From: Dictyostelium firmibasis
Taxonomy: Eukaryota; Evosea; Eumycetozoa; Dictyosteliales; Dictyosteliaceae
DNA: 64,000 nt
NCBI GenBank assembly: GCA_036169595.1
Contig: CM069770.1
Coordinates: forward strand, 1 to 64,000
Reading direction: 5' to 3'
The notes under the pieces are model-generated. The model did not search any database. It was not told the DNA's origin and saw only the letters and a program-made list of their open reading frames with translations. Positions 16,701-44,504 of the stretch are shown piece by piece. Both the position numbers and the translations under genes were made by a program. Numbering within the stretch: position 1 is the stretch's first letter; the number at the start of each line of letters is the position of its first letter.

Positions 16701-17172
16701 TGTAGTAATTTACTCTCGTCTCTGATAATTGGAGAAGAACAATTGGATTTTGATCTTGTAATGATACCTAGATCTAAAAATTTCTCAATCATTTCTTCTA
16801 CCACTTTTTTCTGATCATCTGATGTGTAATAAATCAAAATTTTCGCTGGTTTTATTTCCATACCTATTTTAATCAGAAATTATATAATTATTATTATTAT
16901 CTTTAATATATTATCAATTTCTTTATTTATTATTTTTATCGGTTTCTCTATCTTCACTTTTGAAGGAATTTCAATCTCTTCATTGTGTTTTAGTTTAACC
17001 TCATATACTTTTTGAAGGAACTTCTTTATTTTATTCTATTCTTTAATAGGATCATCATTCTCACTTTCATTGTTTGAATGTTTTAAATTAAAATAAATGT
17101 CCTCAAGTTTTTTTAATGAGTTATGATCATCTAATTGATCATGATCTTCTATGTGATGATAGTTTGAAAAAA
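16701..17172 (-). mobile_element. Skipper fragment (RT start and pol linker)
   Basis: The minus strand matches the start of the Skipper reverse-transcriptase region (MEIKPAKILIYYTSDDQ; compare 26,108 on) and, further right, the linker before the protease (compare 24,970-25,230), with the intervening part missing. It is a broken fossil, more diverged than the copy at 23-29.5 kb. Confidence 0.75.
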
Positions 17173-17179
17173 AAAATTT

Positions 17180-18720
17180 TTATTTATAGTTTCTAAAGAT
17201 AGTTTATAGATAGTATCTAAAGACAGTTTATAGATAGTGTCTATAGATAGTTTCTATAGATAGTTTCTAAATACAGTTTCTAAAGACAGTTTCTATAGAT
17301 GGTGTCTATAGATAGTTTCTAAATATAGTCTATTGATAGTGTCTATAGATAGTTTCTATAGATAGTTTCTATAGATAGTTTCTATAGATAGTTTCTATAG
17401 ATAGTTTCTATAGATAGTTTCTATAGATAGTTTCTATAGATAGTTTCTATAGATAGTTTCTAAAGACAGTTTCTTTAGATAGCTTCTATAGATAGTTTCT
17501 AAAGACAGTTTCTTTAGATAGCTTCTATAGATAGTTTGAAAAAAAAATTTTTTATTTATAGTTTCCAAAGATAGTTTCTATAGATAATTTATAAATACAG
17601 TTTCTAAAGACAGTTTCTATAGATGGTGTCTATAGATAGTTTCTAAATATAGTCTATTGTTAGTGTCTATAGATAGTTTCTATAGATAGTTTCTATAGAT
17701 AGTTTCTATAGATAGGTTCTAAAGACAGTTTCTTTAGATAGTTTCTAAAGACAGTTTCTTTAGATAGCTTCTATAGATATTTTCTATAGTTTCAAAAGAT
17801 AGTTTCTAGTTGGTGTCTAAAGATAGTTTATAGATAGTATCTGTAGATAGTTTCTATAGATAGTTTATAGATAGTTTCTAAAGACAGTTTCAATAGATAG
17901 TGTTAGAGTTTAACTAGTTACTATTTGGAGAACTAGTAACTCGTGACGCAAAATAATGTAAAAACGTGAACGAAACCAAATTCGTAAAAATTAAATTAAA
18001 TTTTTACAATTGTCGAAATTTTGTTATTTTTTTCTCTTAGAAAAAGTCGAAGATGTTTTTATAATTTTTTTTTAAATAAATCATTACGTTAGTTTTCCCA
18101 CACTGAAACTTAAAACTAGAAACTATCTATAGAAGCTATCTAAAGAAACTTTCTTTGGAAACTATCAGCTTCGATAGAAACTATCTATAAACTATCGAAG
18201 CCGATAGTTTATAGATAGTTTATATAAAAGCTATCTAAAGTTTATAGATAGTTACTAAAGACAGTTTTTTTAAATAGCTTCTATAGATAGCTTCCAAAGA
18301 CAGTTTCAAAAGACAGTTTCTAGATGGTTTCTAAAGATAGTTTATAAATAGTATCTGTAGATAGTTTCTATAGATAGTTTATAGATAGTTTCTAAAGACA
18401 GTTTCTATAGATAGTGTCTATAGATAGTTTTCTAAATATAGTTTATAGATAGTGTCTATAGATAGTTTCTATAGATAGTTTCTAAAGATAGTTTATAAAT
18501 AGTATATATCTATAGAAGCTATCTAAAAAAAACTGTCTTTAGAAACTAACTATAAACTATCAATAGCTTCTATAGATAGTTTCTATAGACAGTTTCTAAA
18601 GATAGTTTATAAATAGTATCTGTAGATAGTTTCTAGATGGTTTCTAAATATAGTTTATAAATAGTATCTGTGGATAGTTTACATATATAGTTTATAGACA
18701 GTTTCTAAAGACAAGGTTGA
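17180..18720. repeat. Minisatellite, ~12-14-bp unit ATAGTTTCTATAG
   Basis: About 1.5 kb of short units (GATAGTTTCTATA and the AAAGACAGTTTCT variant), with higher-order blocks repeated, for example 17,170-17,540 against 17,540-17,800. Most units run in one direction, but stretches near 18,115-18,200 and 18,505-18,560 are inverted (AGAAACTATCTATAGAAG), making local palindromes. A partial LTR interrupts it at 17,901. No coding frame is supported. Confidence 0.9.
17901..18114 (+). mobile_element. Partial Skipper-type LTR
   Basis: It begins TGTTAGAGTTTAACTAGTTA and follows the Skipper LTR at 23,023 and 29,167 through CACACTGAAACTT, with clear sequence divergence. It is a solo, truncated and old fossil inside the minisatellite. 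Confidence 0.8.
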
Positions 18721-19013
18721 TGGTTGCCAAGAGTTCATAAACAAATTCGAAGTACTCGATTTACTTGTTTTAATTATTGACTTAACATGAGATTGGAAAG
18801 TCGAATAATCTCCAGTTTCCATCGTTGCTGGATTTGAATTGGTATTGACTCTATCGATTCTTTTGTCAATACTTCTTGAAACGTACCCAGTACTTGAGGA
18901 AACAGATGGTGATGATGACGAGTAAATTGAGCTTGAATCATCGGATACCAAGTTGCTGATCTCCAAATCGGGAAGATCGGTATTATAGAAACCATCTTCG
19001 AACTCTTAGGTAG
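18721..19013 (-). mobile_element. DIRS-1 fragment (recombinase frame)
   Basis: The minus strand encodes the ISNLVSDDSSS... to STSNLFMNSWQPSTL stretch at the start of the tyrosine-recombinase region, matching 30,100-30,388 and 56,120-56,410. It is a short broken fossil. It joins minisatellite on the left and bacterial-looking DNA on the right. Confidence 0.85.
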
Positions 19014-19029
19014 ATTAAATAGATAAAAA

Positions 19030-19074
19030 AGGCTTATTAATCCTGTTGGGGATTAATAAGCCTTTTTTATATAG
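19030..19074. terminator. Intrinsic (rho-independent) bidirectional terminator
   Basis: A perfect 19-bp stem, AAAAAAGGCTTATTAATCC mirrored by GGATTAATAAGCCTTTTTT, with a 6-nt TGTTGG loop, an A-run before and a T-run after. This is the classical form between convergent bacterial genes and has no known role in amoebal nuclear genes. Confidence 0.75.
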
Positions 19075-19243
19075 TTTCATTATTACTTTTATGCTTGATA
19101 TATAACTTATTAGTTAGGCATACCCGATATCGAAATACTGCTTTATTTTCTTTAGAATCATTGAAAAAAAACAAGAGTCGAAGGAAAAAATGGATGGAAG
19201 CGGCTTTCTTAAATTTTTACTATGATCTAACCTTTTATTGCTA

Positions 19244-19405
19244 ATGAGTGTTTCATTGGTGTGTTATCAGTTGTATGTTAAGTTTTTGTATGCTTTGTGG
19301 CGTGAAGAGGCCCGCGCATTGGTGGGCCTTCATCCCGATCTTGTAGGGCTGGGTGTTGCGACACACTATATTAATGGCTTTATTCGCTATTCCTGTCTTT
19401 CATAG
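19244..19405 (+). pseudogene. Small bacterial-type ORF, interrupted
   Basis: The ATG at 19244 opens 53 codons (MSVSLVCYQLYVKFLYALWR...) ending in TAG at 19403-19405. The same frame continues AWTIYSWFDAWYRL to about 19,470, where DIRS sequence begins. Residues such as EEARALVGLHPDLVGLG use codons (GCG, CGC, GGG, CTG) that are rare in the surrounding amoebal DNA. The family is unrecognised. It is either a 53-residue gene or a longer one with one stop. Confidence 0.4.
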
Positions 19406-19470
19406 GCGTGGACGATTTATAGCTGGTTTGACGCCTGGTATCGCCTTTGTGCTCACGACCTAATTGATGT

Positions 19471-22457
19471 TATGTATCAATTTATATTATCATATATATA
19501 TTTATATTATGAATACATTTATTTATTTGATTATTCCCAAATATTTAAGATAATTTTTAAATTTTTAAAAATTTCGCGCAAAGTGTGGTGTGGGGTGTGT
19601 TAAAATTTCCCGCGCAAACAAGTGCGCCAAAAAGTGGGGGAAAAATTTTTTTTTTTTTTTTTTTTTGTTGAAATTTTTACAGACGAATGCATTTCATTAT
19701 AAATACCACACAGAAACTTTTACAATTTGATTTATTTTATTTGGGAATTCCTCCTATATGTTTAAGATACATTCACACAATTTTTATACAAATAATTAAT
19801 TTATAACAATATTTTTATATATTTTAATTTAATATTATACTAACTCATACAATATTTTAAATTAAATAAAATAATGAACACCACTGTTAATAATAACTCT
19901 AATGATCAAAGCTATGGCAGTTCATCTACAGATAATAACACAAATTCGATGGATATTAGAATGAAATCAATTGAAGATCAAATAAATAAATTAACATTAA
20001 CATTTAGTAGATACGTTAAAGAACCAATAACATCTAACAATAATATAAGTAAAAACCAAGAGAATAATAACAATTCAGATAAAGAGAATGAAGATAATGA
20101 TGATGATTCAAATAATGATGTCGATATACCAACTGAATATCAATTATCTGATTCATTGTTTAATGAATATAAACATTTATTAAACAATCAAGGTTCACTT
20201 GTTGAAGAACAATGTATCCTCAAAAAGAACGATATTTCTGATTTTAATAAAACTTTTTGCTTTCCATCAAATTTTCAAGTAAATGTTGCTCCATTCGGTA
20301 CTCCAGATGGTATTACTGCCTCATCTCATCTCAAGAATAATGATTCCGATCTATTCATTGTCGAAAAAAGAATCAATGATATATTGAAACCTATCCTCTT
20401 GATATCAAACATGTTATCATCTACTGAACTATTAAGTTATTTAGCTGATTCTACTATTCTTTTAACTATTAATGCACAAGCATCATTAAGTCGTGTTCGT
20501 CGTAACAACATATCAAAAGAAATATATGGTTCTGAAGTCGTTCAACCAATCAAGATAAAGGATACTCCAAAATTATTTGATGAAACTGAAACTGAAAGTA
20601 TAAGAAAGTTATCAAAGGTAATCAGAAAGAATAATGAAACAAAACAATCATTATCAAAAAGTAGTTATCAATCAAAATCAAGATTTAAGAAATCATTTAA
20701 TAATAACAACAATAATAACAATAATAACAACTCAAGTGGTAATAACACTAATGGAAACAGTAGTAATAGTAAATCCAATAGTGGGAGTAATGGCCGATCC
20801 AACAACTTCAATGGATCCCAAAGTACTGTTGCAGCAGGTAGCAACAATACCAAGTCTGGAAACGGTTCCAACAACAACTACCGTTTTCCGAAGAACAAGA
20901 AGTAAACTTACCGGTAGGTGGACGTCTCGTCCACTTCAAACAAGTTTGGAAAGAATTGGGTCTTCCAAACTTTTGTCAAGAAATAGTAAATGGTCTAAAG
21001 ATTCATCTACTTCCAAACTTCAAACCGATGCTGAACCCAATTCCGATCTCGATGTCAGATGGTCCGAAAACGGATTGCATCACAAACGAAGTACAAGAAT
21101 TGCTACTAGTCGATGCTATAGAGCAAGTACTTCCAAACCGTTATTCAAAACTCGTTTTTTACTCCAACGTGTTTACGGTTCCAAAAGCTGGAACGAATTT
21201 ATTTCGTCCAGTACTAGATTTAAAAAGATTAAACAAGTTCATCAGCAATCAATCATTCAAGATGGAAGGAATAAAAAATCTCTCATCAATGTTGAAACAA
21301 GGTTATTACATGGTAAAACTCGATATCAAGAAAGCTTATCTTCATATATTAGTGGAAGAAAGATTCAGAGACCTATTTCGGTTCGTTTGGAAAGGAATTC
21401 ATTATCGTTGGAAAACGATGCCATTCGGATTATCAACAGCTCCTCGAGTCTTCACAATGTTAATGAGACCAGTACTCCAAAGATTAAGAGAAATCAATGT
21501 ATCAGTAATCGCTTACTTGGACGATCTTCTAATTGTTGGTTCAACAAAAGAAGAATGTATTCTCAACCTCAACAAAACAATGGACCTTTTGTTAAAACTG
21601 GGATTCAAATTAAATCTAGAAAAGAGTGTTTTACGACCAACTCAAACAATAACATTTCTCGGCTTAGAAATCGACTCAATATCAATGAAATTGCTTGTCC
21701 CGGAGAAAAAGAAAAAGAGTGTCATCAAAGAAATAAAAAACTTTCTAAAACTGGATTCAAGTTCTCTAAGAAAGTTAGCTGGTTTAAAAGGAAAGCTTAT
21801 TGCATTGAAAGATGCAGTAATACCATTCCGTCTATACACTCGACAAACAAACAAGTTCCATTGTCAAAGTTTAATTATCGCAAATGGAAATTGGGATCAA
21901 TCATTTACAATCCCTCAAGAAGTAAAGATAGAAATATCAAATTGGTTAAAACTCTTAAACCAATGGAATGGAAAAGAAATAAGTCTTTTTCCAAGTTACG
22001 ATTATGTGTTAACAACAGATGCATCAGAATCAGGTGCAGGTGCAACTCTAAAGAAAGGAAACAAGCTCATACAAACTTGGTCTTTCCAATGGTCAACCGA
22101 CCAATCAAACATGTCATCGAATCGTCGAGAAATGCTTGCACTATTAATGGCATTTCAAAAACTTTGTCGAAAGTTAAAGAGCTGCAATCTAAAAGTTCAA
22201 ACCGACAACACAACAACTCTATCGTATATCAACCGTCAAGGTGGTTAAATCCAGAACCTATCGATTCTCTTCGAACAACTTTGGAAACAATGTCTCAAGA
22301 AGAAAATCAATCTGATCGGGGAACACATTCCAGGATTCTTCAATATCAAAGCCGATCACCTCAGTCGTCTATCAGAGATGAATCACAAATTATCCAAGCC
22401 GATCAAGAGTTACAACTGGCAACTCAAAAAAGAAGTATTCAATCGAATTCAACTCCA
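19471..22457 (+). mobile_element. DIRS-1, 3'-truncated copy
   Basis: It has a type A left terminal repeat (about 19,475-19,868, with CGCGCAAAGTGTGGTG), then the gag frame from 19,874, and the overlapping frames for reverse transcriptase/RNase H (from 20,956; YLDDLLIVG, TTDASESGAG) and the recombinase-side ORF. It ends abruptly near 22,457 against an inverted DIRS piece. It is broken, with the right third missing and few other breaks. Very close to the whole copy at 57.5 kb, so young. Confidence 0.9.
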
Positions 22458-30887: not shown

Positions 30888-32326
30888 TCATTTATTGTTT
30901 CTTAAATTAAAATTGATTTGTTCAATATGGAATATCATTATTAAACAGTACGAAAGGAAGTTTGGTTGATGAATTCCTCTTTGTTTTACTATTCCCCATC
31001 TATTCTTCATATCAGCAAACTTGTTCTCTACCAATGACCGTTTACCAGCTTGGAAATGATGGAATCTTGATTCCACAACTTTTCTTTCTTGATTGGAAAG
31101 TATTTCGTCACCTTTACCAAGAAGATTTTTGATTCTCTTTGGTGTATAAAACAAGGTACCGTTGTAAGCAGGGTCTGCAAGTACTGAAAACTCTTCTCCG
31201 TTTTTTATAAAAGAGTAAATTAGATCATTGAGACCAGTTAACATTGACATACCTGAATCATTATTATGACCTTTACCAATGATCGCAGAATCGATTGTAC
31301 CATTTTCATCGACAAGTATTTGAATTGTAAAAGAGTGATACTTTAAGTCGCCTCTGTACCATTCGAATTGATATGGATGCACTCGATTGATTCTAAAATC
31401 GGTACAATCGACATAATGTAAACAGTTTGAGTTCATTAACTCCAACGAGATGGTATAAAGACATGGTTACATAAGTGGAATAAGTGCACGTACAGCTCTT
31501 GAAATAGTAGCACTACAAATACCAAAGATTCTCTTTAACAATGAGGTCGAATTTGGTCCTTTCTAAATTATTTGACAAAAATATTTAATATTCTAATATA
31601 ATAGTAATCTAAAACTTATTTTTAATATGTACAGACCTTCAAAAAAAACAATACTAACAACACTTTCAATCTTGAATCTAACAAACATTTAAACTCTTTG
31701 ACTGAGTTTCTACACAATCTAACAATTTCATCAACGAGATCTATTGGGAAACCTAATTCATTGTAAACATCTACTTGATTGTAATGAGTTGGATATAAAT
31801 CTTTAAATATTCTAACAGTTTTACGAGATTGGTTTTTATTTAATGGAGTTGGAACAAATGTATCATTTCTATATCTCTTTTTAATTGTTCTTTCCAATCT
31901 ATTAATATTAATATAGTTATGTCTAATAATTTTCTTTTGTTGAACATCATTATTTTCATTCAGTTGATTCAAAATCCTGAATGGATCATTGTTGAATATG
32001 TTTGTATTCGAGTTAAGTTTTTTAATTATAATACTCTTTATTAAGTTGATTTTGGAAATTGTTGCTATAATCATCTTTATTACTACAATAGTTTCTACAT
32101 CATCGTTATCGAATTGATTTGTATTTATAAAATCTTTTACAATTGTTTCAAATCGATTTAGTTCAAATGTTTCTAACATGTTTTTATTAAAACCATCATC
32201 TAAAATTTCCCAAGTAGATTCATTAAAACTATATCCTTCCCATTTTATAAAGTATTCTATCGAACCATCTATAATTCTTTTATCTAAAATTTCTTCAACA
32301 TTATATCGATAATTGTTACTATCCAT
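30888..32326 (-). pseudogene. Chromodomain-HTH-DDE transposase, copy A (one stop)
   Basis: Exon 1 is 32326-31637 (230 codons) and starts with a chromodomain at residues ~8-40 (NVEEILDKRIIDGS, then FIKWEGYSFNESTWEI with the aromatic-cage positions). A 74-nt GT-AG intron follows at 31636-31563. Exon 2 is 31562-30888 and encodes an HTH-like stretch (CSATISRAVRAL) and a DDE_4/PIF-type nuclease: VDCTDFRI (first Asp), LADPAYNG (second Asp), LVENKFADMKNRWG (Glu). A TAA at 31469-31467 interrupts exon 2; copy B reads an Ile codon there. Exon 2 has no in-frame ATG before the catalytic region, and the intron is phase 0 with the same boundaries in copy B, so I infer one fused protein of ~454 residues. 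Without splicing, exon 1 would end four codons into the intron. Confidence 0.7.
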
Positions 32327-32880
32327 TTGAGTTAACTTGATATCAAATAAATAATTGTTATTTATAGGAATTATAGTTTATAAGTTTAAATAATATTAAT
32401 AGTTTATAGGTTTTTAATTATATTATTTAATGTGAATAGAAAATTAATGTGAAACAATTATTTTCACACAAGTGGTATAAAAAAATAATAAATTTAATTA
32501 AATTTAATTACTTTTTAACACTAACCCACACGTGGTAAAAATTATTGAAAATAAATTGAAAAAAATAAATAATTTAATTTAATTTAATTATTTACCCCTA
32601 GTGTGGTTAAATTATATCGATAATTTACAACAATTGACACGTGGCAATATTATTATTAAAATAAATTAATAAAAACACCCACATTTTTAATTTTATTTTT
32701 TACTTTTTATTATTTTTTATTTTTTATTTTTTAATATCTTTAATTTTTTAATTAGAAAACTACAATAAGTTACACAAAACAATTTAATTATTAAAAACAA
32801 AAACAAACATATATATTAAGTAATAACATTCTTTTATTAAACACCATGGGTATGCATTACTAAAATAAAAATAATATAGT
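32327..32880. promoter_or_regulatory. Divergent intergenic region of Harbinger copy A
   Basis: It separates the 5' ends of the two element genes. It has AT-rich DNA with three near-repeats of a CACACGTGG/ACACGTGGCAA-type word (near 32,530, 32,600 and 32,636, containing the CACGTG palindrome). The same words occur in copy B (~42,890-43,020). They could be binding sites for the element's own Myb/SANT-like protein; this is inference. Confidence 0.35.
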
Positions 32881-33921
32881 TTACAAATTGTTTTATTAAC
32901 AAAATGTGTTTTAATAGATTTTAGAAATCTAAAAAAATATAAATTAGATAAATCAAACAATAACAATATTAATAAAAATAATATTAGTAATAACTATGAA
33001 TCAACAGAATCAACAGAATCTAGTAGTGAAAATGAAGAATATAGTGATGATATTGCATTGTCAAACAATGAAAATGATGATTACAGTGATAATGATACTT
33101 TTAATGATAATGATAATAGGTTTGAAGATACTGATATCGAAAGTCAACAACAATCACTTGATTCTAGCGAGTCAGATGATGATCTAGATGACTCGGATTC
33201 CAGAGATATAGATTCAAACTCAAATGTTTGGAATTGGGAAACAACACATACATTCTTGACATTTTATTTAAAGAATTTAAGAAACCCGAATATCAATTCA
33301 TTATCAAACAAAAGTGTAATGCAATTAACAGTTTCCGACTATAATAAAAAGTATAAAACCAATCTCAGTGTCAAACAAGCTTTGTCGTACTTATCAAATC
33401 TCAGAGGCGTTAATTCAAAATTGAAAAAACCATTCACTCGTCCAAAGAGATTCACAAGTCATCACATCAATAAATATGGTTCCAAACATAATTTCAGTTT
33501 ATATCTTGATACTTGTGAAAACTATTTTAACAAATCTTCTAAATTATTGGAATTAATAGAGAAAGAATTAAGAAGTTCTCAAGTAATTGGTGATACCGAA
33601 TCAAGATTAAATTCTTCCCAAATCTCTGATGATATTGCTTCTCAACAACAGAATAGAACAAATGTAAGAAGAGATCGTTATTCAACTTTAACAAATATCT
33701 TTCAAGATGAAAAATCATTCAGAGGGAAGGTATGCTCCAGACTTGAAAAACAAGAACAGATCGAAAGAGAAAAGTTAGACCATCAAATTAAACAAGATAG
33801 TGTTAATAACTCTTTAAACTCTAGATTAATAACACAACTAGAAAGATCAAGTAACCAATTAGAAGTGTTGTCTGAAATATTGATTCAACTATTAAAAAAT
33901 AAAACCAATCCCAATAAATAA
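32877..33921 (+). CDS. Myb/SANT-like protein of Harbinger element, copy A
   Basis: The frame is open from about 32,877 to the stop at 33,921. No ATG lies in frame before the TTG at 33058, so the start is uncertain and an upstream exon is likely (an AG acceptor sits just before 32,877). The N-terminal part is Asn/Asp/Glu/Ser-rich and acidic. It is followed by a Myb/SANT-like helical region (WNWETTHTFLTFYLKNL, then VSDYNKKYKTN and KQALSYLSNLRG) and a C-terminal coiled-coil stretch (EKQEQIEREKLDHQIKQ). In Harbinger elements the Myb-like protein brings the nuclease to the ends. I judge the family from the Trp/Leu spacing only. Confidence 0.6.
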
Positions 33922-34077
33922 AAATTAAATCTTTTCATTTATAAATTATAAAAAAAGTATTCATTTTTTAAGGCTTATGTTTTTTACAAAAATTAAATTT
34001 AAATCTGTGAAAGTATACACATCTTAAGTTTTGAAATTGTAATTTAATATTTAAATTTAAGTAAGTGAAAACACCTC

Positions 34078-34937
34078 AATTAAAGCTCCTGTTATCAATG
34101 CAAAAGAACAAAGGAATACAAAGAATGCTGATATTTCCATTTTAGAATTAACTTCATTAGATGAATCCAATGCAAGTATTTGTCCAGTTCTCCATCTTTC
34201 AAGATACCTCAAACACTCTGAACAAAGAAGAACTGTTCATCTGGTGACTCAGTATTCATTCTCCGTGATGGTAGTCCAGTTTCAGTCGAATATATAAACT
34301 CTATAGTTTTATCAATACTCTCAAAATCAGGTATTGATATTACAAAGTTCAAATCTCACTCTACTCGTTCCGCTATGGCTTCTCTCTTGTTGTCCAGCAA
34401 TGTTCCATTCCATGTGGTCAAGAAACTCGGTCGTTGGAAATCAAATGATACAGTTGATAACTTTTATGACAAGAAAATCATTGGTGAAAAATCCGGTGGT
34501 TTCTTAAATAATGTAGTCCAACTTTCATAAATTTAAATATATATGATAATATAAATTAAAATTTAAATAATTAAATTATATTTTATATTAAATATATATA
34601 TTTAAATTGGTCCCAGCCCGCCCTCCCTTAGTCGGAATTACATATAAATCAAATTGTTTTCAATGTTTAGTGCCACTATTTATACTATTTTTACTTTCTT
34701 CAAAATTTCTCAAAACTCAAAAAAATAGGTGCGTGACACGTGGCAACTTTTTTCAAACTCGAAATTTTTCATTTTTTCAATAATTTTTTCGAGCTAAAAT
34801 ATCTCCAGAAAATCTCTTGAATTTCTCTGAAAATTATCTTAAATATTTGGGAATTTCAAATAAATAAATGTATTCATAAATTTAAATATATATATTTAAT
34901 ATAAAATATAATTTAATTATTTAAATTTTTAATTTAC
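34078..34937 (+). mobile_element. DIRS fragment: recombinase C-terminus and type B right terminal repeat
   Basis: It encodes the C-terminal recombinase motifs (HSTRSAMASLLLSSN and KKLGRWKSNDTVDNFYD, to about 34,530), then a terminal repeat of type B (CACGTGGCAACTTTTTTC, CTCCAGAAAATCTCTTG) ending AATTTACGA near 34,937. A broken fossil. Its end is the left border of the bacterial segment. Confidence 0.9.
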
Positions 34938-34940
34938 GAT

Positions 34941-35375
34941 CAAAATCAGTGGAAACACTCTTCGCTAAAACTTGTTCTTTCAAAGAATCAATTTCATCCA
35001 GATTTCGATCAGTCAGTGGGTGCCCTCTTTTTTGAAAAAGGTACAGTCTTGCTTCCAAAAACCGAAATGAAGTCTCATGATGGGTCAACGCTCTATGCTC
35101 AAGGCACACCCAACTTTGAAACTGTGCCGACAACTCTAAGCCGTATATCTTATGATATTATCTTCATCAAAGATGGTAAGATAGAACACACGGCTATTGA
35201 AGTTCCTTTCTATCTTGCTAGGCTCTATTTCAGCAAGAGCGCTCTGTTGGACGATCTGATCTTACAGAGTTTCAAGAGAAAACCATCTACTCTATTCTCG
35301 CTCAAGATCCCCTGTCTCTCCCCTGTCTCTTTAGGAGATTTCTTGGAAAATGGAGCTTCAGAAAGAGTTTTTTGA
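34941..35375 (+). pseudogene. Unrecognised bacterial gene remnant 1
   Basis: The plus frame from 35,016 gives a soluble-looking protein (GTPNFETVPTTLSRISYDII then DGKIEHTAIEVPF). It ends at 35,375, and another frame carries coding-like sequence over the last ~100 bp, so a frameshift is likely. The opposite strand also has an open frame of 70 codons (35,133-34,921), so the strand is not fully certain. The 5' part is lost at the DIRS border. Confidence 0.4.
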
Positions 35376-36180
35376 AATTCTGAAAGAGAGTTATCAGAAG
35401 ATGGGCTTATCGGAAATTACGCTTAATTAACAGCAAACACTACAGATCGCGCCGATTTTTAAAAAAAATATGGAAAATATTTTGAAGAATTGCCCTATAT
35501 TCGATCGGTTGTTCAGAGGCAACCAAACAAAGAGCTAAGCCAAATCGTTCCTATAATAGAAGATGTATATCAAGAAGCCCAAGCAAGAGATAAACAGTCT
35601 ATAATAGAGAGATCTATATCTTGGGCACAGAATCAAGGGCCTTTTCCGATTAGCAACAGATTCGGGCATGAAGAGTATACAACGAGTCGAAAGAGTAACT
35701 CGTTTCCCTTTGATCCACTCAACGCTCTCTATAACTCAAAAGACAAGATACGCGGTGTTGCAAAATATGAAAATTCTATTTTTCAAGAGTGTTTAGAAGA
35801 GCAAAAAAAGAGTGCCCCATCTCCTCGATTCATTCAAGCGCTCTACTATATGGCTTTTTTTTCTGAAGATTGGGAAGTTCAAAAGGTTGGAGTAAAAGCA
35901 CTGAATATAGTAAATAGAGGCTCTATTACTCCCATAAACAGGTAGAATCCTCTCTCATAAAGTTGTTAAAGTCACAATTGAAAGAGTATAATCATGTTAT
36001 GATACCCAATAGAGATCTTCATCCAACTTTTAAAAGCGGGAGAGATTCCAACTCATTCAGTCGCTCTATTTTATGGCCTTTTTTGCTGAAGAGACAAAAG
36101 TTCGAAAGGTTGGTAATAAAGCTCTTAGTCTCATCTATAGGGTAGGTAGAGGCCAATAGAGAGTGGCTTTCAGCAAAAGA
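35376..36180 (+). pseudogene. Unrecognised bacterial gene remnant 2, with repeated C-terminal motif
   Basis: The coding-like frame (GKYFEELPYIRSVVQRQPNK...) enters before 35,490 and runs to a stop at 35,943. A motif near its end, FIQALYYMAFFSEDWEVQKVG, recurs at about 36,040-36,140 in another frame as LIQSLYFMAFFAEE and VRKVGNKALSL. So the gene once had tandem ~35-residue repeats and has lost its frame between them. It may be the continuation of remnant 1. No family is recognised; helical repeats are likely. Confidence 0.45.
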
Positions 36181-36197
36181 GAAAACAGTGAATCCCT

Positions 36198-37934
36198 CTA
36201 TTCAATAGATATTTTCTCTATATTTGCCGATAGAGAGAGCTCTCCCTGCTTTGGAGCGTGAGGAAAGCTCTCTTCTGGGACGTAGATCGAAAAAAATGAG
36301 ACGTTTCTTGTCACTTTTTCTGCAGACCATGCCCGAACAAAATGGTCCATCTGATCTTCAATCGTCTTCTCAGTGCAAAAGAGGGCGATTGAAGTTCCCC
36401 TATCAAGCGCATGACGGATAAGTTCGCCACTCTCAGCATAAGGCAAAACCTCATTCATATCATGAATGACTAAAATTCGTATGAGCTTTCGAGCAATACG
36501 AGCCAATAGAGGGGGATTTTCTTGAGGCGCCTTCATCGTAAGAAGCCTCATTCGTCTCCTTTGAGAGGCTAAAAGAACTGGAGCCCATACCCAAAATGTT
36601 TGTGGAACGATAAAGATAGAGGGTTGATCTAGAGGAACAATCTCCTTTCCTTTCAATGAGGCAGGGAAGAGGATCTTCGTGAAGAGAAAAGAGAAGAATC
36701 GCGCAATATATCCAGATGTCGATATAGAGATTACAAAGACTACAGCTAGTGAGAGCATTCCAATAAAGGTGAATCCTTTATCTGGTTCAAGCTGTAGTAT
36801 CTCGCTAATAATATAGAGAGCTGTAGCAGAGCAGAGAACCCCTAAAAAGCCAAAAAAATTTGTCGTAGCGACTATTTGGCATCGATATGTCTTTGGACTT
36901 GCTACCTGAATATAGGAGTCGAGAGGAACTAAATAGATTCCACCAAAAAAGCCTATAAGATAGATAAAAATCATCACATGATTCAGAGTAGTAGTCTATG
37001 CAGAAGCAGCTTATGACTATCCCAAAGCCGCCGATAGGGACGAGTCCAAATTCCACCGCCTTTCCAGATAATTTTCCAGCAAGATAGGAGCCAGTGCCTA
37101 TTCCAAATGCAGTTAAAAGGAACATATAGCCACCTTGAACATCTGAAAGATGAAGCACTTTCATCGAGAAGGGAATCATATTTAATTGAACATAGGAGCC
37201 AATAAAGAGGAAAAAGCTTGAACCTACCACTGCTGAGAGAAGAGAGGGCTCTTTTCGGATAATTTTGAGATTCCGTAAGAGGCCAGAAAAGGGGTTCATT
37301 GACAATTTTTTTCTTGTCCCAGCTTGAGGGGTGCTTTGAATCTTCATGCTCGAATAGAGTGCCATGCAAGAGCCAACAAGACAAAATAGCGTTGAAAGAA
37401 CAAAGTTTTTTCCGGTGATATCGGTCAAAAATGAGGCCAAAAAAGTCCCTGCAATAATGGCAATGTAGGTGCATGAGGTCAAAATGCCATTGGCTTTTGA
37501 AATCTCCTCCTTTTGGATAATCTCAGGGAGAATTCCAAACTTTCAGGCGCGAAGATAGCACTATGAGTGGCTAGCAAGAAAAGAGCTGAAAAGGAGATTA
37601 AGAGGCTCTGAAAAAAGAAACCGCATAGGCCTAAAAGCATAATGCCAATCTCAATCATTCTGGTAATAACGATGATCTTCTGTTTGCTAAATCGATCTGC
37701 CAATGTTCCTGAAACTGATGCGAGTAGCAAAAATGGAATGACATAGATAATGCCTGTCAAGGAGAGAGTCAAACTATTTGCTCTATTCCCTTCAATCATA
37801 ATACAGAAATAGATAAACAAAAGTTTAAAGATATTATCATTCAAAGCGCCTATAAATTGGCAGATATTGAGAAAGCGAAAGGATTTCCAATTCGATAGCA
37901 TTTTTTTTTCTTCAATTGTATAGTTCGAACTCAT
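36198..37934 (-). pseudogene. ygeD-like: MFS transporter-acyltransferase fusion, LplT/YgeD type, frameshifted
   Basis: Three overlapping minus-strand frames form one gene. The first starts MSSNYTIEEKKMLSNWKSF (start ~37,934) and has the conserved LplT phrases FIGALNDNIFKLL, GTLADRFSKQK and HSAIFAPESL. The second carries further membrane helices (TYIAIIAGTFLASF...). The third (to 36,198) has the last helices and a PlsC-like domain. Frameshifts lie near 37,490-37,540 and 36,900-37,000. The family (lysophospholipid transporter fused to 2-acyl-glycerophosphoethanolamine acyltransferase) imports and re-acylates lysophospholipids in the inner membrane. The expected HxxxxD acyltransferase motif is not visible; the matching place reads VPQTFWVWAPVLL, so that domain may have been inactive even in the donor. 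Confidence 0.75.
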
Positions 37935-38097
37935 ATAACGTCTCAGGTATGATCTCTTGTATATTTTGCTATTATCAATAAAAACTCTTCTCAATCGGGA
38001 CTATATCATGGCCGAGAGGAGCAAAAAAACTGTATCATACTATTCATAAGAAATTCCCTGAAGAAAAATGCATGAATATTGAGTAGATTGAAGTTTG

Positions 38098-40380
38098 ATG
38101 AGAGAAATTCCGTTCCACCTTAGTAATTCTCTTTCCTCCCTATCTCAGATGCTTATAAAGACTATAGAAGATCTGAGGAGAATAGACTCTTTTCAATCGG
38201 GAGAAAAGCGCCATCTTATCGTTGTTGCCTCTCATGCAAAAAGAGCCTGGATTTTCCATCAACTGAGTAATCAAGGAGTCTCACTTTTAGATATCGATAT
38301 TCTGCTCATAGAGGAGTTTTTTGTCTTTCTTAGAGGAGGGCGCAATTTTCCCTCTTGGGATAGCTCGCTTCTTTCAGCTATCGTCTCATCAAAATGGGCG
38401 TATGAGAATGAAGAGGCTAAATCCTACTTCTATAAAATCGCTGTAAGTCTCTTTAAGGGATCTCCTATCTCTATCGAAAAGCCTTTTATAGCGATATGGG
38501 AATCTTTAAAAAAGCAGATTCCAGAGCTATTTTAGAATCATATCCAGGCTTTTAAAAATGGTTTTCTTGAAGAGTTCTATCTCAGTATTTCAGTATTTGG
38601 CATCTCTAGCCTATCTGAAGCGATTTTAAGCTCCTTTATAGAGACCCATTCTCTCAGTTCTATTCCCCTCTTTTTCTATACTCTCTCTCCCTGCCTCCAT
38701 TTTTGGAGCGATGTAAAGACGCAAAAAGAGATTCAAAAAATTATTGATGAAATTAAGAGAGGCGGGACTAATCGCCTATTGATTCAAGCTTCAGAGATGG
38801 CTCTCTCTCGAAAAAATGATCTTCTTGGAAATTGGGGGGTATTGGCTCGGGAGTTTTCCAAGCAGATTGAAGAGGGCCCATTTCATACTATTACAAGCTA
38901 TCTTATTCCATCCCATCTTCAACATAGAGCGCCTTATCAAGAGATGCTCATTCCTGAATATCTCAATACCTCTTTAATTACATTAGAGTCGCATGCCTCT
39001 CTTCTTCATGTAATTCAAGCTGATATCGTCTCTTTTGTCTCAAAAAGAGAGATAAAGGAAACTATTGAAAATGAAAATGAGGAGTCTCTCTATTTCGTTT
39101 TAGCTCCTACCATTATCCAAGAGGTTCAAGCATTTCGAAAGTACCTTCTTCAAAAGAGATCTAGCACGGTCAAAATTGCAGATATTTTTGTACTTGTTCC
39201 ATCGATTGATGAGTATAGAGATGCCTTTATGCAGGTCTTTCATAGCGATCAAAAGGCTATTCTTCAGTTTTGGCCAAAGTCAAAAATGGAGATGAGTGCC
39301 TATGAGTCTGAAAGTGAGCTTCTCTCTTGGATCTCTCTTCTTTTTGGTCTTCTTGGAATGAAGAGTAAGCAGACGAATCTGAGAAAGGGCAGCTATGCAT
39401 TGATGAACCTTGCTTTTCACCCGCTCACACTTCGAGCTCTCTTTGCTGAAGAGGCAGAGAGCTGTTAGGGTGAATTTCGGAGGTATTTAGAAAAATTGGG
39501 ACTCGATTGGTATATCTCTTCCGCACATCTCGCACGCGAAATGGAAGCCAAATGAATCAATCTCATCTATGAAAGCGAAATAGGCGATTTTTCTTCAATT
39601 AAAGAGAAAAAAATAGGGGAGCTGATCGGTCAGTCTGCCGATGGAGAGTCAGCAACTCTCTTGCATCGAGAGATGAGTAATGCCTTCATCTCACTTGCCC
39701 TATTTTTTGAATCTTGTGACGCTCTCTGGACTCTTCCGATTTCTCCAGATAGGGTACAAAAAATTGAGGAGTGGATTTCTCCTCTTCAACAAACAGTGAG
39801 CCTTTTTCCCCTATTGGAAGAGGCTATAGAGATGGATGATTTAGAGGCTTTTGAGGTTGTCATCTCTCGATTTGTAGATTTATGTCACCGTTTTCCAGAA
39901 GTGAAAATGAGCTTTGATTGGTTTACAGACTCCTTTCAGCGAGAGCTATTTGAGGATATTTCCAATAGGCAGCAGCTTCGTCGATTTACTGGACATATCT
40001 TCATCAGCGATAGAGAGAGCTTCGATTCGATTCCATGTGCGGGGGTTGCCATTTTAGGCGCAGGACACGATCAGTTCCCTCACGTAACTCGTGAGCATCT
40101 TCTCTCCCATTTAACGAAGATTGCACCAACTGTTCTTCATGATCCGTCTAGCATCGATAAGCAGCTCTTCTTAGAACAACTGCTCTCTAGCTCTTCTTGG
40201 TTCTACTGCAGTGCGCTCTCGGCAAGTAGAGAAAAAGAGGGGTTGCACCATTTCTCTCCCTGGTTCGAGACCTTATTCGCTATGTCGATCAAAACTTCAT
40301 CTATCGGGATGGAGCTGCTTTTTCACAAAAAAATGTCTCCTTTATTGGATATGAGAAGAGATTTCAAAAGGCCCAGTTAG
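38098..40380 (+). pseudogene. recC: Exodeoxyribonuclease V gamma subunit (RecC), broken and 3'-truncated
   Basis: One frame runs from the ATG near 38,098 to 40,380 (about 760 codons), with three in-frame stops (TAG ending 38,535, TAG ending 39,468, TGA ending 39,555). RecC proteins are ~1,000-1,120 residues, so the C-terminal quarter is missing or frame-lost. RecC-type features: a Walker-less helicase-like N-terminus (HLIVVASHAKRAWIFHQL), the FVLVPSIDEYRDAFMQVF segment, and late in the frame the IPCAGVAILGAGHDQFPH phrase and SSIDKQLFLEQLLSS (compare the iPfrvv.llGl.d..FPR and D..lFLeal words of the family). RecC recognises Chi and joins RecB in DNA break repair. It is divergent from the ygeD-like gene. 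Confidence 0.75.
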
Positions 40381-40436
40381 AGCCTATTTCCTCTTCTTCA
40401 AAGCTCCCTCAAAAAAATGGAGAGGCTAACTTTATA

Positions 40437-41447
40437 ATTAAAAATTTAAATTATTAAATTATATTTTATATTAAATATATATATTTAAATTTATGAATAC
40501 ATTTATTTATTTGATTATTCCCAAATATTTAAGATAATTTTCAGAGAAATTCAAATGAATTTTCTGGAGGTTTTTTAGCTCGAAAAAATTATTGAAAAAA
40601 TGAAAAATTTCGAGTTTGAAAAAAGTTGCCACGTGTCACGCACCTATTTTTTTTGAGTTTTGCGAAATTTTTCAGAAAGTAAAAACAGTATAAATAGTGG
40701 CACTAAACATTGAAAACAATTTGATTTATATGGAATTCCGACTAAGGGAGGGCGGGTTGGGACCAATTTAAATATATATATTTAATATAAAATATAATTT
40801 AATTATTTAAATTTTTAATTTATATTATCATATATATATTTAAATTTATGAAAGTTGGACTACATTATTTAAGAAACCACCAGATTTTTCACCAATGATT
40901 TTCTTGTCATAAAAGTTATCAACTGTATCATTTGATTTCCAACGACCGAGTTTCTTGACCACATGGAATGGAACATTGCTGGACAACAAGAGAGAAGCCA
41001 TAGCGGAACGAGTAGAGTGAGATTTGAACTTTGTAATATCAATACCTGATTTTGAAAGTATTGATAAAACTATAGAGTTTATATATTCGACTGAAACTGG
41101 ACTACCATCACGGAGAATGAAAACTGAATCACCAGATGAAACAGTTCTTCTTTGTTCAGAGTGTTTGAGGTATCTTGAAAGATGGAGAACTGGACAAATA
41201 CTTGCATTTGATTCATCTAGTGAAGTTAATTCTAAAATGGAAATATCAGCATTCTTTGTATTCCTTTGTTCTTTTGCATTGATAACAGGAGCTTTAATTG
41301 AGTGTTCAGTGATTATTAAATTCTTGTAAGACCATTTGATCAAGTCAGATGATCCTGCTAAACCAAACATTTTACAAAGAACAAAAGTCTTATGTAGAAG
41401 AACAGAGTATGTAAACTTTGGATAAACGTTGATTGTAGATAAGTATT
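40437..41447 (-). mobile_element. DIRS, left part of an interrupted copy: type B terminal repeat and recombinase C-terminus
   Basis: A type B terminal repeat (about 40,437-40,845) is followed on the minus strand by the recombinase C-terminal half (HSTRSAMASLL, GRWKSNDTVDNFYD). It is nearly identical, inverted, to 34,078-34,937. The element resumes at 55,810 after the Harbinger-type insertion. A fossil broken by that insertion and shortened at its far end. Confidence 0.9.
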
Positions 41448-41604
41448 GAGGTGTTTTCACTTACTTAAATTTAAATATTAAATTACAATTTCAAAACTTA
41501 AGATGTGTATACTTTCACAGATTTAAATTTAATTTTTGTAAAAAACATAAAGGCTTAAAAAATGAATACTTTTTTTATAATTTATAAATGAAAAGATTTA
41601 ATTT

Positions 41605-42520
41605 TTATTTATTGGGATTGGTTTTATTTTTTAATAGTTGAATCAATATTTCAGACAATACTTCTAATTGGTTACTTGATCTTTCTAGTTGTGTTATTAA
41701 TCTAGAGTTTAAAGAGTTATTAACACTATCTTGTTTAATTTGATGATCTAACTTTTCTCTTTCGATCTGTTCTTGTTTTTCAAGTCTGGAGCATACCTTC
41801 CCTCTGAATGATTTTTCATCTTGAAAGATATTTGTTAAAGTTGAATAACGATCTCTTCTTACATTTGTTCTATTCTGTTGTTGAGAAGCAATATCATCAG
41901 AGATTTGGGAAGAATTTAATCTTGATTCGGTATCACCAATTACTTGAGAACTTCTTAATTCTTTCTCTATTAATTCCAATAATTTAGAAGATTTGTTAAA
42001 ATAGTTTTCACAAGTATCAAGATATAAACTGAAATTATGTTTGGAACCATATTTATTGATGTGATGACTTGTGAATCTCTTTGGACGAGTGAATGGTTTT
42101 TTCAATTTTGAATTAACGCCTCTGAGATTTGATAAGTACGACAAAGCTTGTTTGACACTGGGATTGGTTTTATACTTTTTATTATAGTCGGAAACTGTTA
42201 ATTGCATTACACTTTTGTTTGATAATGAATTGATATTCGGGTTTCTTAAATTCTTTAAATAAAATGTCAAGAATGTATGTGTTGTTTCCCAATTCCAAAC
42301 ATTTGAGTTTGAATCTATATCTCTGGAATCCGAGTCATCTAAATCATTATCTGACTCGCTAGAATCAAGTGATTGTTCTTGACTTTCGATATCAGTATCT
42401 TCAAACCTATTATCATTATCATTAAAAGTATCATTATCACTGTAATCATCATTTTCATTGTTTGACAATGCAATATCATCACTATATTCTTCATTTTCAC
42501 TACTAGATTCTGTTGATTCT
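41605..42520 (-). CDS. Myb/SANT-like protein of Harbinger element, copy B
   Basis: The minus frame ends at 41,605 and is open past the TTG at 42,468, into the same STESTESSSENEEYSDD lead as copy A. It differs from copy A by only a few substitutions (for example TNPSVKQ for TNLSVKQ, IESQEQS for IESQQQS). Order of parts: acidic N-terminus, Myb/SANT-like helices, coiled coil. The true start is uncertain, as in copy A. The near identity to copy A means recent activity or gene conversion. Confidence 0.6.
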
Positions 42521-43206
42521 GTTGATTCATAGTTATTACTAATATTATTTTTATTAATATTGTTATTGTTTGATTTATCTAATTTATATTTTTTTAGATT
42601 TCTAAAATCTATTAAAACACATTTTGTTAATAAAACAATTTGTAAACTATATTATTTTTATTTTAGTAATGCATACCCATGGTGTTTAATAAAAGAATGT
42701 TATTACTTAATATATATGTTTGTTTTTGTTTTTAATAATTAAATTGTTTTGTTTAACTTATTGTAGTTTTCTAATTAAAAAATTAAAGATATTAAAAAAT
42801 AAAAAATAAAAAATAATAAAAAATAAAAAATAAAAATTAAAATTAAAAATGTGGGTGTTTTTATTAATTTATTTTATTAATAATATTACCACGTGTCAAT
42901 TGTTGTAAATTATCGATATAATTTAACCACATTAGGGGTAAATAATTAAATTAAATTAAATTATTTATTTTTTTCAATTTATTTTCAATAATTTTTACCA
43001 CGTGTGGGTTAGTGTTAAAAAGTAATTAAATTTAATTAAATTTATTATTTTTTTATACCACTTGTGTGAAAATAATTGTTTCACATTAATTTTCTATTCA
43101 CATTAAATAATATAATTAAAAACCTATAAACTATAAATATTATATAAACTTATAAACTATAATTCCTATAAATAACAATTATTTAATTGATATAAAGTTA
43201 ACACAA

Positions 43207-44185
43207 ATGGATAGTAACAATTATCGATATAATGTTGAAGAAATTTTAGATAAAAGAATTATAGATGGTTCGATAGAATACTTTATAAAATGGGAAGGAT
43301 ATAGTTTTAATGAATCTACTTGGGAAATTTTAGATGATGGTTTTAATAAAAACATGTTAGAAACATTCGAACGAAATCGATTTGAAACAATTGTAAAAGA
43401 TTTTATAAATACAAATCAATTCGATAACGATGATGTAGAAACTATTGTAGTAATAAAGATGATTATAGCAACAATTTCCAAAATCAACTTAATAAAGAGT
43501 ATTATAATTAAAAAACTTAACTCGAATACAAACATATTCAACAATGATCCATTCAGGATTTTGAATCAAGTGAATGAAAATAATGATGTTCAACAAAAGA
43601 AAATTATTAGACATAACTATATTAATATTAATAGATTGGAAAGAACAATTAAAAAGAGATATAGAAACGATACATTTGTTCCAACTCCATTAAATAAAAA
43701 CCAATCTCGTAAAACTGTTAGAATATTTAAAGATTTATATCCAACTCATTACAATCAAGTAGATGTTTACAATGAATTAGGTTTACCAATAGATCTCGTT
43801 GATGAAATTGTTAGATTGTGTAGAAACTCAGTCAAAGGGTTTAAATGTTTGTTAGATTCAAGATTGAAAGTGTTGTTAGTATTGTTTTTTTTGAAGGTCT
43901 GTACATATTAAAAATAAGTTTTAGATTACTATTATATTAGAATATTAAATATTTTTGTCAAATAATTTAGAAAGGACCAAATTCGACCTCATTGTTAAAG
44001 AGAATCTTTAGTATTAGTAGTGCTACTATTTCAAGAGCTGTACGTGCACTTATTCCACTTATGATACCATGTCTTTATACCATCTCGTTGGAGTTAATGA
44101 ACTCAAACTGTTTACATTATGTCGATTGTACCGATTTTAGAATCAATCGAGTGCATCCATATCAATTCGAATGGTACAGAGGCGA
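43207..44185 (+). pseudogene. Chromodomain-HTH-DDE transposase, copy B, 5' part
   Basis: Exon 1 is 43207-43896 (chromodomain NVEEILDKRIIDGS at residues ~8-21, FIKWEGYSFNESTWEI to ~42). The intron is 43897-43970 (GT...TAATTTAG, phase 0). Exon 2 begins at 43971 with KGPNSTSLLKRIF and the SSATISRAVRALIPLM helix-turn-helix, reads through the position that is a stop in copy A, and reaches the first catalytic Asp (VDCTDFRI). It is cut at 44,185 by the CACTG element; the remainder is at 55,180-55,639. The only break I see in this copy is that insertion. Confidence 0.75.
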
Positions 44186-44504
44186 CACTGGAAAAGCCTG
44201 TAAAAAATAAATGAAAATAAAATTTCGCGCATTTTCAATATTTCAAAAAAAAAAAAAATTGTGTTTTTGAAATAGCACGAAATAATTTATTTTCTTTATT
44301 TTGAAATTTATTTTGGAAATCAATATAAACGTGTTTTATAATAAAAATAATAATAACAATAATATACTTACATATAAAAAATGATTTAATTTATTAATTT
44401 TTATTTAAAAATAATTTTTCGGGATTTTTTTAATTTTTTTTTTTTTTTAATTTTTTTTTTTTTTTTTTCTAACACATTGTCATATAAAAACTTCACATAT
44501 TAAA

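What the first reader, a model, noticed from the sequence alone, without database searches (positions are those of the whole stretch)
34938..40436. Fossil chlamydia-type chromosome segment inside an amoebal centromere cluster
A 5.5-kb block of visibly higher GC, without the A/T runs seen everywhere else, carries recC divergently beside a ygeD/lplT-type MFS-acyltransferase gene plus two unrecognised gene remnants. Established: recC and ygeD are, as I recall, neighbours in Chlamydia (CT640/CT641), and wild D. discoideum harbour chlamydial endosymbionts. Inference: endosymbiont DNA was captured by a DIRS cluster and decayed there. Stops and frameshifts in all genes, and DIRS termini on both borders, argue against simple contamination, though a chimeric assembly is not excluded.
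Basis: partly seen in the sequence, partly recalled or inferred. Interest (0 to 1): 0.93.

Follow-up and report, generated by a model that had tools for sequence, protein, structure and literature searches.

The report
Chlamydial DNA scattered through amoeba centromeres
A piece of chromosome from a chlamydia-like bacterium was built into a social amoeba's own nuclear DNA, spread to transposon-rich regions (taken to be centromeres) on four chromosomes, and is decaying there, leaving a tag both of a past symbiosis and of sequence exchange between chromosomes.

Summary
The window is the start of contig C6 of the Dictyostelium firmibasis TNS-C-14 assembly, not D. discoideum. Window 34938-40436 is decayed chlamydial DNA: recC, a divergent MFS-acyltransferase gene and unidentified remnants. 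RecC, the acyltransferase and a porin from sister copies have their best matches on contigs of one length, 1,543,817 bp, fitting the 1.5-Mbp circular genomes reported for chlamydial endosymbionts of Dictyostelium. Eight blocks (about 30 kb in all, covering about 13.5 kb of one chlamydial stretch) lie in transposon-rich regions of four large contigs (C1, C2, C5, C6). The five blocks that share the recC side differ by 0.5-1.6% (9 of 10 pairs), and no recC stop is shared by all, so the DNA multiplied before recC decayed. Ten of 16 block ends abut DIRS terminal repeats; at all ten another block runs on uninterrupted, so DIRS interrupted bacterial DNA already there. The two sides of one such insertion now lie on different contigs. 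Best explanation: one transfer, DIRS insertion, spread between clusters, independent decay. Contamination or chimeric assembly is very unlikely, but reads were not available. New variant of a known kind (nuclear-integrated endosymbiont DNA).

The parts
34938..40436 (.). Decayed chlamydial chromosome segment (this copy)
   Evidence: GC 39.9% vs 26.8%; genes with chlamydial best matches; other copies
38149..40436 (+). recC (exodeoxyribonuclease V gamma) remnant, 3' part missing; three in-frame stops and a frame change near 40230-40260
   Evidence: 86% to P0001 residues 1-703; stops; P0001 carries PF04257
36201..37901 (-). MFS-acyltransferase (LplT/Aas-like, 'ygeD') remnant in two frames
   Evidence: 94% and 95% to P0083 in its middle and C-terminal pieces; the N-terminal alignment runs out of frame and scores 61%; Pfam MFS_1; NCBIfam matches of P0083 all below cut-off
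34938..36200 (.). Unidentified gene remnants, continuous with the rest also in the C5 copy
   Evidence: DNA matches of 98.7% and 96.8% to C5; no Pfam family; no credible match in 20 chlamydial loci held
34553..34937 (+). DIRS inverted terminal repeat, outer end abutting bacterial DNA
   Evidence: Inverted repeats I4, I8, I11; junction against uninterrupted C5 sequence
40436..40820 (-). DIRS inverted terminal repeat, outer end abutting bacterial DNA
   Evidence: Inverted repeats I4, I8, I10; junction against uninterrupted C5 and C1 sequence
40846..41460 (-). DIRS tyrosine recombinase, C-terminal part; mirrored at about 34079-34530 on +
   Evidence: PF00589, 39.7 bits; arms
30889..34078 (+). Other repeat element with a 287-aa ORF (33058-33921); mirrored at 41447-44186. 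Its end abuts bacterial DNA directly on C5
   Evidence: 99% match to C5:4134468-4137657; ORF without Pfam match; junction
31347..44186 (.). Large imperfect inverted repeat with the bacterial block in its loop
   Evidence: pieces I1-I8, seven at 95-99% complementarity and I6 at 80%

Best explanation
This is nuclear-integrated DNA of a chlamydial endosymbiont in Dictyostelium firmibasis. Shown: gene content, gene order and best matches are chlamydial; one ~13.5-kb stretch occurs as eight blocks in transposon-rich regions of four large contigs; DIRS and other elements interrupt it; lineages of copies have their own stops and deletions. Inferred: one fragment of symbiont chromosome entered a DIRS cluster, DIRS elements inserted into it, and pieces spread between clusters by recombination or copying within the homologous arrays. 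It probably has no bacterial gene function now and persists as cluster DNA.
For: (1) Best matches of RecC (86%), porin (91%) and MFS-acyltransferase lie on contigs of one length, 1,543,817 bp, second-best bacterial ones on contigs of one length, 861,650 bp (one search lists 67% for the acyltransferase because its middle is out of frame there). In a 45-row tree the in-frame C-terminal piece is sister to P0083, 96% over 257 columns, SH-aLRT 100, path 0.045 against 0.51 to the next row. (2) Acyltransferase divergent to recC in 8 of 13 chlamydial genomes looked at, recB beside recC in 10 of 13, in short loci (the 13 are G001 and the 12 best of 43 with a match). (3) Eight blocks: C6 one, C5 three, C1 three, C2 one. 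(4) By my reading 10 of 16 block ends abut DIRS terminal-repeat ends, and at all 10 another block runs on uninterrupted. (5) The two sides of one DIRS insertion lie on C6 and C1, with the uninterrupted site on C5. (6) Five stop sites in the recC frame among five blocks: three only in C6, one in both C5 blocks, one only in a C1 block; some blocks are deleted at some sites. (7) Private substitutions: 22 GC>AT, 5 AT>GC, of 40. (8) A deposited D. firmibasis protein model, P0002, begins in recC sequence and ends in the ORF behind a DIRS left end.
Against: No reads were available. The donor chromosome was not seen, so contiguity of the 13.5 kb rests on overlapping copies and partial gene order. Only a small part of the genome could be read, so other chlamydial inserts are not excluded. 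Six of 16 block ends do not abut a DIRS terminal repeat. A 311-bp piece is inverted between a C1 and a C5 copy. Some recC pieces are still stop-free (e.g. C5:4139228-4140433).
Confidence: 0.85

Rival explanations
1. Several independent transfers of the same symbiont region, not one transfer followed by spread.
For: No recC stop is shared by all five blocks examined, as independent arrivals would also give; most internal deletions differ between copies.
Against: All eight blocks fall in the same ~13.5 kb, against about 1.5 Mb for the likely relative's chromosome. The two C5 places share a deletion of about 760 bp and a recC stop. One DIRS insertion appears split between C6 and C1.
Confidence: 0.1
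2. Bacterial cargo of a non-autonomous DIRS-type element: terminal repeat, cargo, terminal repeat moved as a unit.
For: In C6 and at C5:4266632-4268670 the block has terminal-repeat ends on both sides in opposite orientation.
Against: The outer ends of the repeats face the bacterial DNA, so it lies outside the elements. Limits differ between copies, both ends are of the same type in C6 and at that C5 place, and uninterrupted counterparts exist.
Confidence: 0.05
3. Chimeric assembly or contamination by a living endosymbiont.
For: The authors discarded contigs of bacterial origin, so bacteria were in the sample (passage); food was E. coli 281 (passage). Reads were not checked here.
Against: Copy-specific stops, deletions and junctions at seven places on four contigs, uninterrupted counterparts, and imperfect inverted arms. 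Best matches are chlamydial, not E. coli.
Confidence: 0.02
4. The bacterial genes were kept for use by the amoeba.
For: The porin frame in one C5 copy has no stop over residues 9-435 of P0012.
Against: Every recC and acyltransferase copy examined is broken or truncated; mRNA coverage is low in the chromosome 1 DIRS1 region (passage).
Confidence: 0.02

Closest known systems
Multi-copy Wolbachia inserts (nuwts) in Drosophila ananassae chromosome 4 (PMC4299567: abstract and outline seen)
   Same: Endosymbiont DNA in the host nucleus, in several copies, heterochromatic in one line
   Different: Chlamydiota in an amoeba; a small piece (~13.5 kb) rather than whole genomes; spread over four contigs; interruptions resolved to single DIRS insertions
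Chlamydia-like endosymbionts of Dictyostelium (PMC12324515: passages seen)
   Same: Likely close relatives of the donor: two circular 1.5-Mbp genomes reported; contigs of 1,543,817 bp hold the three best matches
   Different: Those are living bacteria in other isolates; here only decayed nuclear DNA was seen, in D. firmibasis
DIRS1 clusters of Dictyostelium (PMC11193728 and PMC12324515: passages seen)
   Same: DIRS-rich regions on the chromosomes; PMC12324515 states that DIRS1 acts as centromere
   Different: I found no report of bacterial DNA inside them (listings; open-licence library)
DIRS-1 knock-down cassette (PMC4482531: abstract and outline seen)
   Same: A foreign fragment next to DIRS terminal repeats of opposite orientation
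   Different: In the cassette opposing repeats transcribe the fragment from both sides; here the outer repeat ends face the bacterial DNA, so I expect those promoters to point away (inference)

Membership tests
Chlamydiota chromosomal segment | Best protein matches are chlamydial, on one genome | tested here: met
   P0001, P0012, P0083 on contigs of 1,543,817 bp, unnamed. Named lower matches are mostly Chlamydiales, Parachlamydia or Protochlamydia; MAGs labelled Verrucomicrobia (P0039, P0153) and one weak Thermodesulfobacteriota RecC (P0008) also appear
Chlamydiota chromosomal segment | Acyltransferase divergent to recC, recB downstream | tested here: met
   In the copies. In chlamydial genomes: 8 of 13 and 10 of 13, short loci
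Chlamydiota chromosomal segment | Nesting among chlamydial proteins in a tree | tested here: met
   Sister to P0083, SH-aLRT 100; 44 of the 120 listed matches used (339 matched), quick method, no outgroup chosen from outside Chlamydiota
Nuclear-integrated endosymbiont DNA | Continuous with host nuclear sequence on both sides | tested here: met
   Host repeats at the ends of the eight blocks in the assembly; reads not seen
Nuclear-integrated endosymbiont DNA | Decay that differs between copies | tested here: met
Nuclear-integrated endosymbiont DNA | Single reads spanning host-bacterium junctions | not testable with these tools
   No reads held
DIRS retrotransposon (flanking element) | Tyrosine recombinase and inverted terminal repeats | tested here: met
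   PF00589; terminal repeats
DIRS retrotransposon (flanking element) | Insertion without long target-site duplication | tested here: met
   Filled site on C5 against uninterrupted site on C1: only a few A/T bases are ambiguous
Non-autonomous DIRS element with bacterial cargo | Same outer limits in different copies | tested here: not met
   Limits differ among the eight blocks
Centromere DNA | Binding of centromeric histone | not testable with these tools
   Label taken from PMC12324515 passages

The most novel reading that the evidence does not exclude
Symbiont DNA has become a shared, silenced component of the centromere clusters of at least four chromosomes, and its spread records continuing sequence exchange between centromeres of different chromosomes; the fragments may be read into small RNAs together with the DIRS arrays.
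Probability: 0.35. Interest if true: 0.85.

Novelty: new variant of a known kind. Interest (0 to 1): 0.74.

Why it matters
It is molecular evidence that the D. firmibasis lineage once had close contact with a chlamydial symbiont. Because the DNA is foreign, it is an unambiguous tag: clusters that carry it share history, so exchange between the DIRS clusters of different chromosomes becomes directly traceable. It also shows that annotation has turned symbiont fossils into an amoeba gene model (P0002).

Tried and rejected
A named donor genome: two scans of genome contigs gave nothing for P0001 and one distant MAG for an alignment. 43 of 232 Chlamydiia genomes hold a RecC match at E <= 1e-10, all distant, 22-33%. 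Three taxonomy names gave nothing and a fourth only the generic 'Chlamydiales bacterium'.

siRNA memory against chlamydiae: attractive because opposing DIRS-1 repeats make siRNAs in D. discoideum (abstract of PMC4482531), but here the outer repeat ends face the bacterial DNA; kept only within the novel reading.

ATP/ADP translocase as a second chlamydial gene: PF03219 gave one weak hit on C11 with stops (21.8 bits, cut-off 21). The DNA beside it looks bacterial but is unidentified; 0 of 232 Chlamydiia genomes match its 289-aa ORF, and the tool warns that such an empty answer shows nothing. A P0083 hit on C3 (22%, 26.8 bits) is taken as a host transporter.

The remnants at 34938-36200 and two ORFs between them and the porin (from the C2 and C1 copies) had only two matches, at E 0.31 and 0.99, in 20 chlamydial loci held.

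Full report
WHERE THE WINDOW IS. The window is G000:C6:1-64000 of a 31,455,843-base, 12-contig assembly. A protein named 'RB653_007972 [Dictyostelium firmibasis]' lies on a contig of 4,277,925 bp, exactly the length of C5. The D. firmibasis TNS-C-14 paper reports 12 contigs, 31.5 Mbp, a largest contig of 9.4 Mbp and a DIRS1 region at 4.5-4.8 Mbp of chromosome 1 (passages of PMC11193728); C1 here is 9,412,997 bp. One figure disagrees: the paper gives 3.9 Mbp as the smallest main contig, C6 here is 2,984,280 bp. I take the host as D. firmibasis.

THE BLOCK. Window 34938-40436 has 39.9% GC against 26.8% for the rest; no other 5,499-bp stretch tested exceeds 33.0%. It holds recC on + from 38149 and the MFS-acyltransferase on - from 37901. 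recC is in one frame with three stops and changes frame near 40230-40260; the acyltransferase changes frame twice. Remnants at 34938-36200 have no Pfam family and no credible match in the 20 chlamydial loci held.

WHOSE DNA. RecC's best match is P0001, 86% identical over 93% of the query, on a 1,543,817-bp NCBI contig. The porin of a sister copy matches P0012 (91%) and the acyltransferase matches P0083 on contigs of the same length; one search lists 67% because the middle of the query is out of frame, while the in-frame pieces are 94-96%. The next matches of RecC (leaving aside the amoeba's own P0002), porin and acyltransferase are on contigs of 861,650 bp. In a 45-row tree the window's C-terminal acyltransferase piece is sister to P0083 with 96% identity over 257 columns and SH-aLRT 100, path 0.045 against 0.51 to the next row (44 of the 120 listed matches, 339 matched in all; quick method, no outgroup). 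The order, acyltransferase divergent to recC with recB downstream, is seen in 8 of 13 and 10 of 13 chlamydial genomes, whose loci are short and cut some genes off (G001 and the 12 best-scoring of 43). The 303-aa ORF at the far end of the C5 copy matches 174 of 232 Chlamydiia genomes at E <= 0.001.

IT IS MULTICOPY. Searches of the own genome found eight blocks at seven places: C6:34938-40436; C5:4137659-4145480 and, beyond one DIRS element, C5:4150193-4154652; C5:4266632-4268670; C1:4722461-4725596; C1:4589922-4593656; C1:4522574-4523037; C2:4953592-4956328. Together they make about 30 kb. By overlap they cover about 13.5 kb (my sum: the two neighbouring C5 blocks plus what that copy lacks in recC), in the order conserved chlamydial gene, porin, unidentified genes, acyltransferase, recC, recB. 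Counts are lower bounds, because the tool scores only the best candidates. Protein searches with P0001 and P0083 added no further place apart from a weak 22% hit on C3.

WHAT INTERRUPTS IT. From the printed junctions (with matches) I read DIRS terminal-repeat ends at 10 of 16 block ends: both ends of C6, the inner ends of the two neighbouring C5 blocks, both ends of C5:4266632-4268670, the left ends of C1:4722461 and C1:4589922, and the right ends of C1:4522574-4523037 and C2. The other six abut an LTR that I call Skipper-like from recall (two), the 287-aa-ORF element or a piece of it (two), sequence that also lies inside the C5 DIRS element (one, C1:4593656) and another repeat (one, C1:4725596). 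At all ten DIRS-abutting ends another block runs on uninterrupted. The clearest case has both sides in place: DIRS at C5:4145480-4150193 against the uninterrupted site on C1. So these DIRS elements entered existing bacterial DNA. At C6:34938 the recC-side half is next to one type of DIRS end; the other half is at C1:4589922 next to the other type; C5 is uninterrupted. A single insertion now split between two contigs explains this best; two insertions at the same spot are the alternative.

HISTORY. The five blocks that share the recC side differ by 0.5-1.6% in 9 of 10 pairs; the tenth pair shares 60 bases and differs at 2. The porin-side blocks are 97.8-99% identical in DNA matches. The two C5 places share a deletion of about 760 bp and one recC stop and are 99.5% identical. 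Of five recC stop sites, three are only in C6, one is in both C5 blocks, one is only in a C1 block, and none is in all; at four of the five sites one to three blocks are deleted. So the copies separated before recC broke. Of 40 private substitutions 22 are GC>AT and 5 AT>GC, as expected in an AT-rich nucleus, though not proof of it. With a mutation rate near 3e-11 per site and generation (recalled for D. discoideum), 1.3% would mean on the order of 2e8 generations; gene conversion could make it older.

MECHANISM. Shown: integration next to host elements, DIRS insertion into the bacterial DNA, several decayed copies on four large contigs. Inferred: one entry event, then exchange or copying between DIRS clusters. 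That DIRS1 acts as centromere comes from passages of PMC12324515; I did not test it. The large inverted repeat around the C6 block has the 287-aa-ORF element joined to the same DIRS position in both arms, so the arms may be an inverted duplication rather than two separate insertions.

ALTERNATIVES. Independent transfers would need the same 13.5 kb of about 1.5 Mb to arrive each time. A DIRS-type cargo unit is disfavoured because limits differ and outer repeat ends face the bacterial DNA. A chimeric assembly would have to invent consistent copy-specific lesions and matching uninterrupted sites at seven places; the inverted arms are not identical. Reads remain the missing test.

KNOWN OR NEW. 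Multi-copy endosymbiont DNA in a nucleus is known from Wolbachia in Drosophila ananassae (abstract of PMC4299567). I found no report of chlamydial DNA in Dictyostelium DIRS clusters in the listings, in a library of open-licence papers only. I file it as a new variant of a known kind.

Noticed in passing
window 19001-19475; L034 (C11:19640-22330); C7:111313-111562 and 117821-118457: A second foreign-looking fragment in DIRS surroundings: a terminator-like hairpin in the window, and on C11 an ORF of 289 aa behind a ribosome-binding-site-like sequence. No family found; no match in plasmids, phages, IMG/VR or 232 Chlamydiia genomes.
   Followed up: partly
C5:4266632-4269400, protein P0002: The deposited D. 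firmibasis gene model RB653_007972 begins in decayed chlamydial recC and ends in an ORF behind a DIRS left end (taken as DIRS ORF1); the place on C5 is my reading of the sequence.
   Followed up: yes
C5:4150573-4151850 (L033): The porin frame in this copy has no stop over residues 9-435 of its bacterial relative, unlike the C1 copy (one stop, two frames) and the C2 copy (two frames).
   Followed up: partly
window 30889-34078 and 41447-44186: An element with a 287-aa ORF and no Pfam match occurs in both arms of the inverted repeat at the same DIRS position and abuts bacterial DNA on C5.
   Followed up: partly
L031 (C1:4590283-4590593): A 311-bp piece of the bacterial DNA is inverted relative to the C5 copy.
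   Followed up: no
window 17150-18710: Array of short repeats matching the end of contig C11, where it reads like AACTATCTATAGAAACTATC.
   Followed up: no
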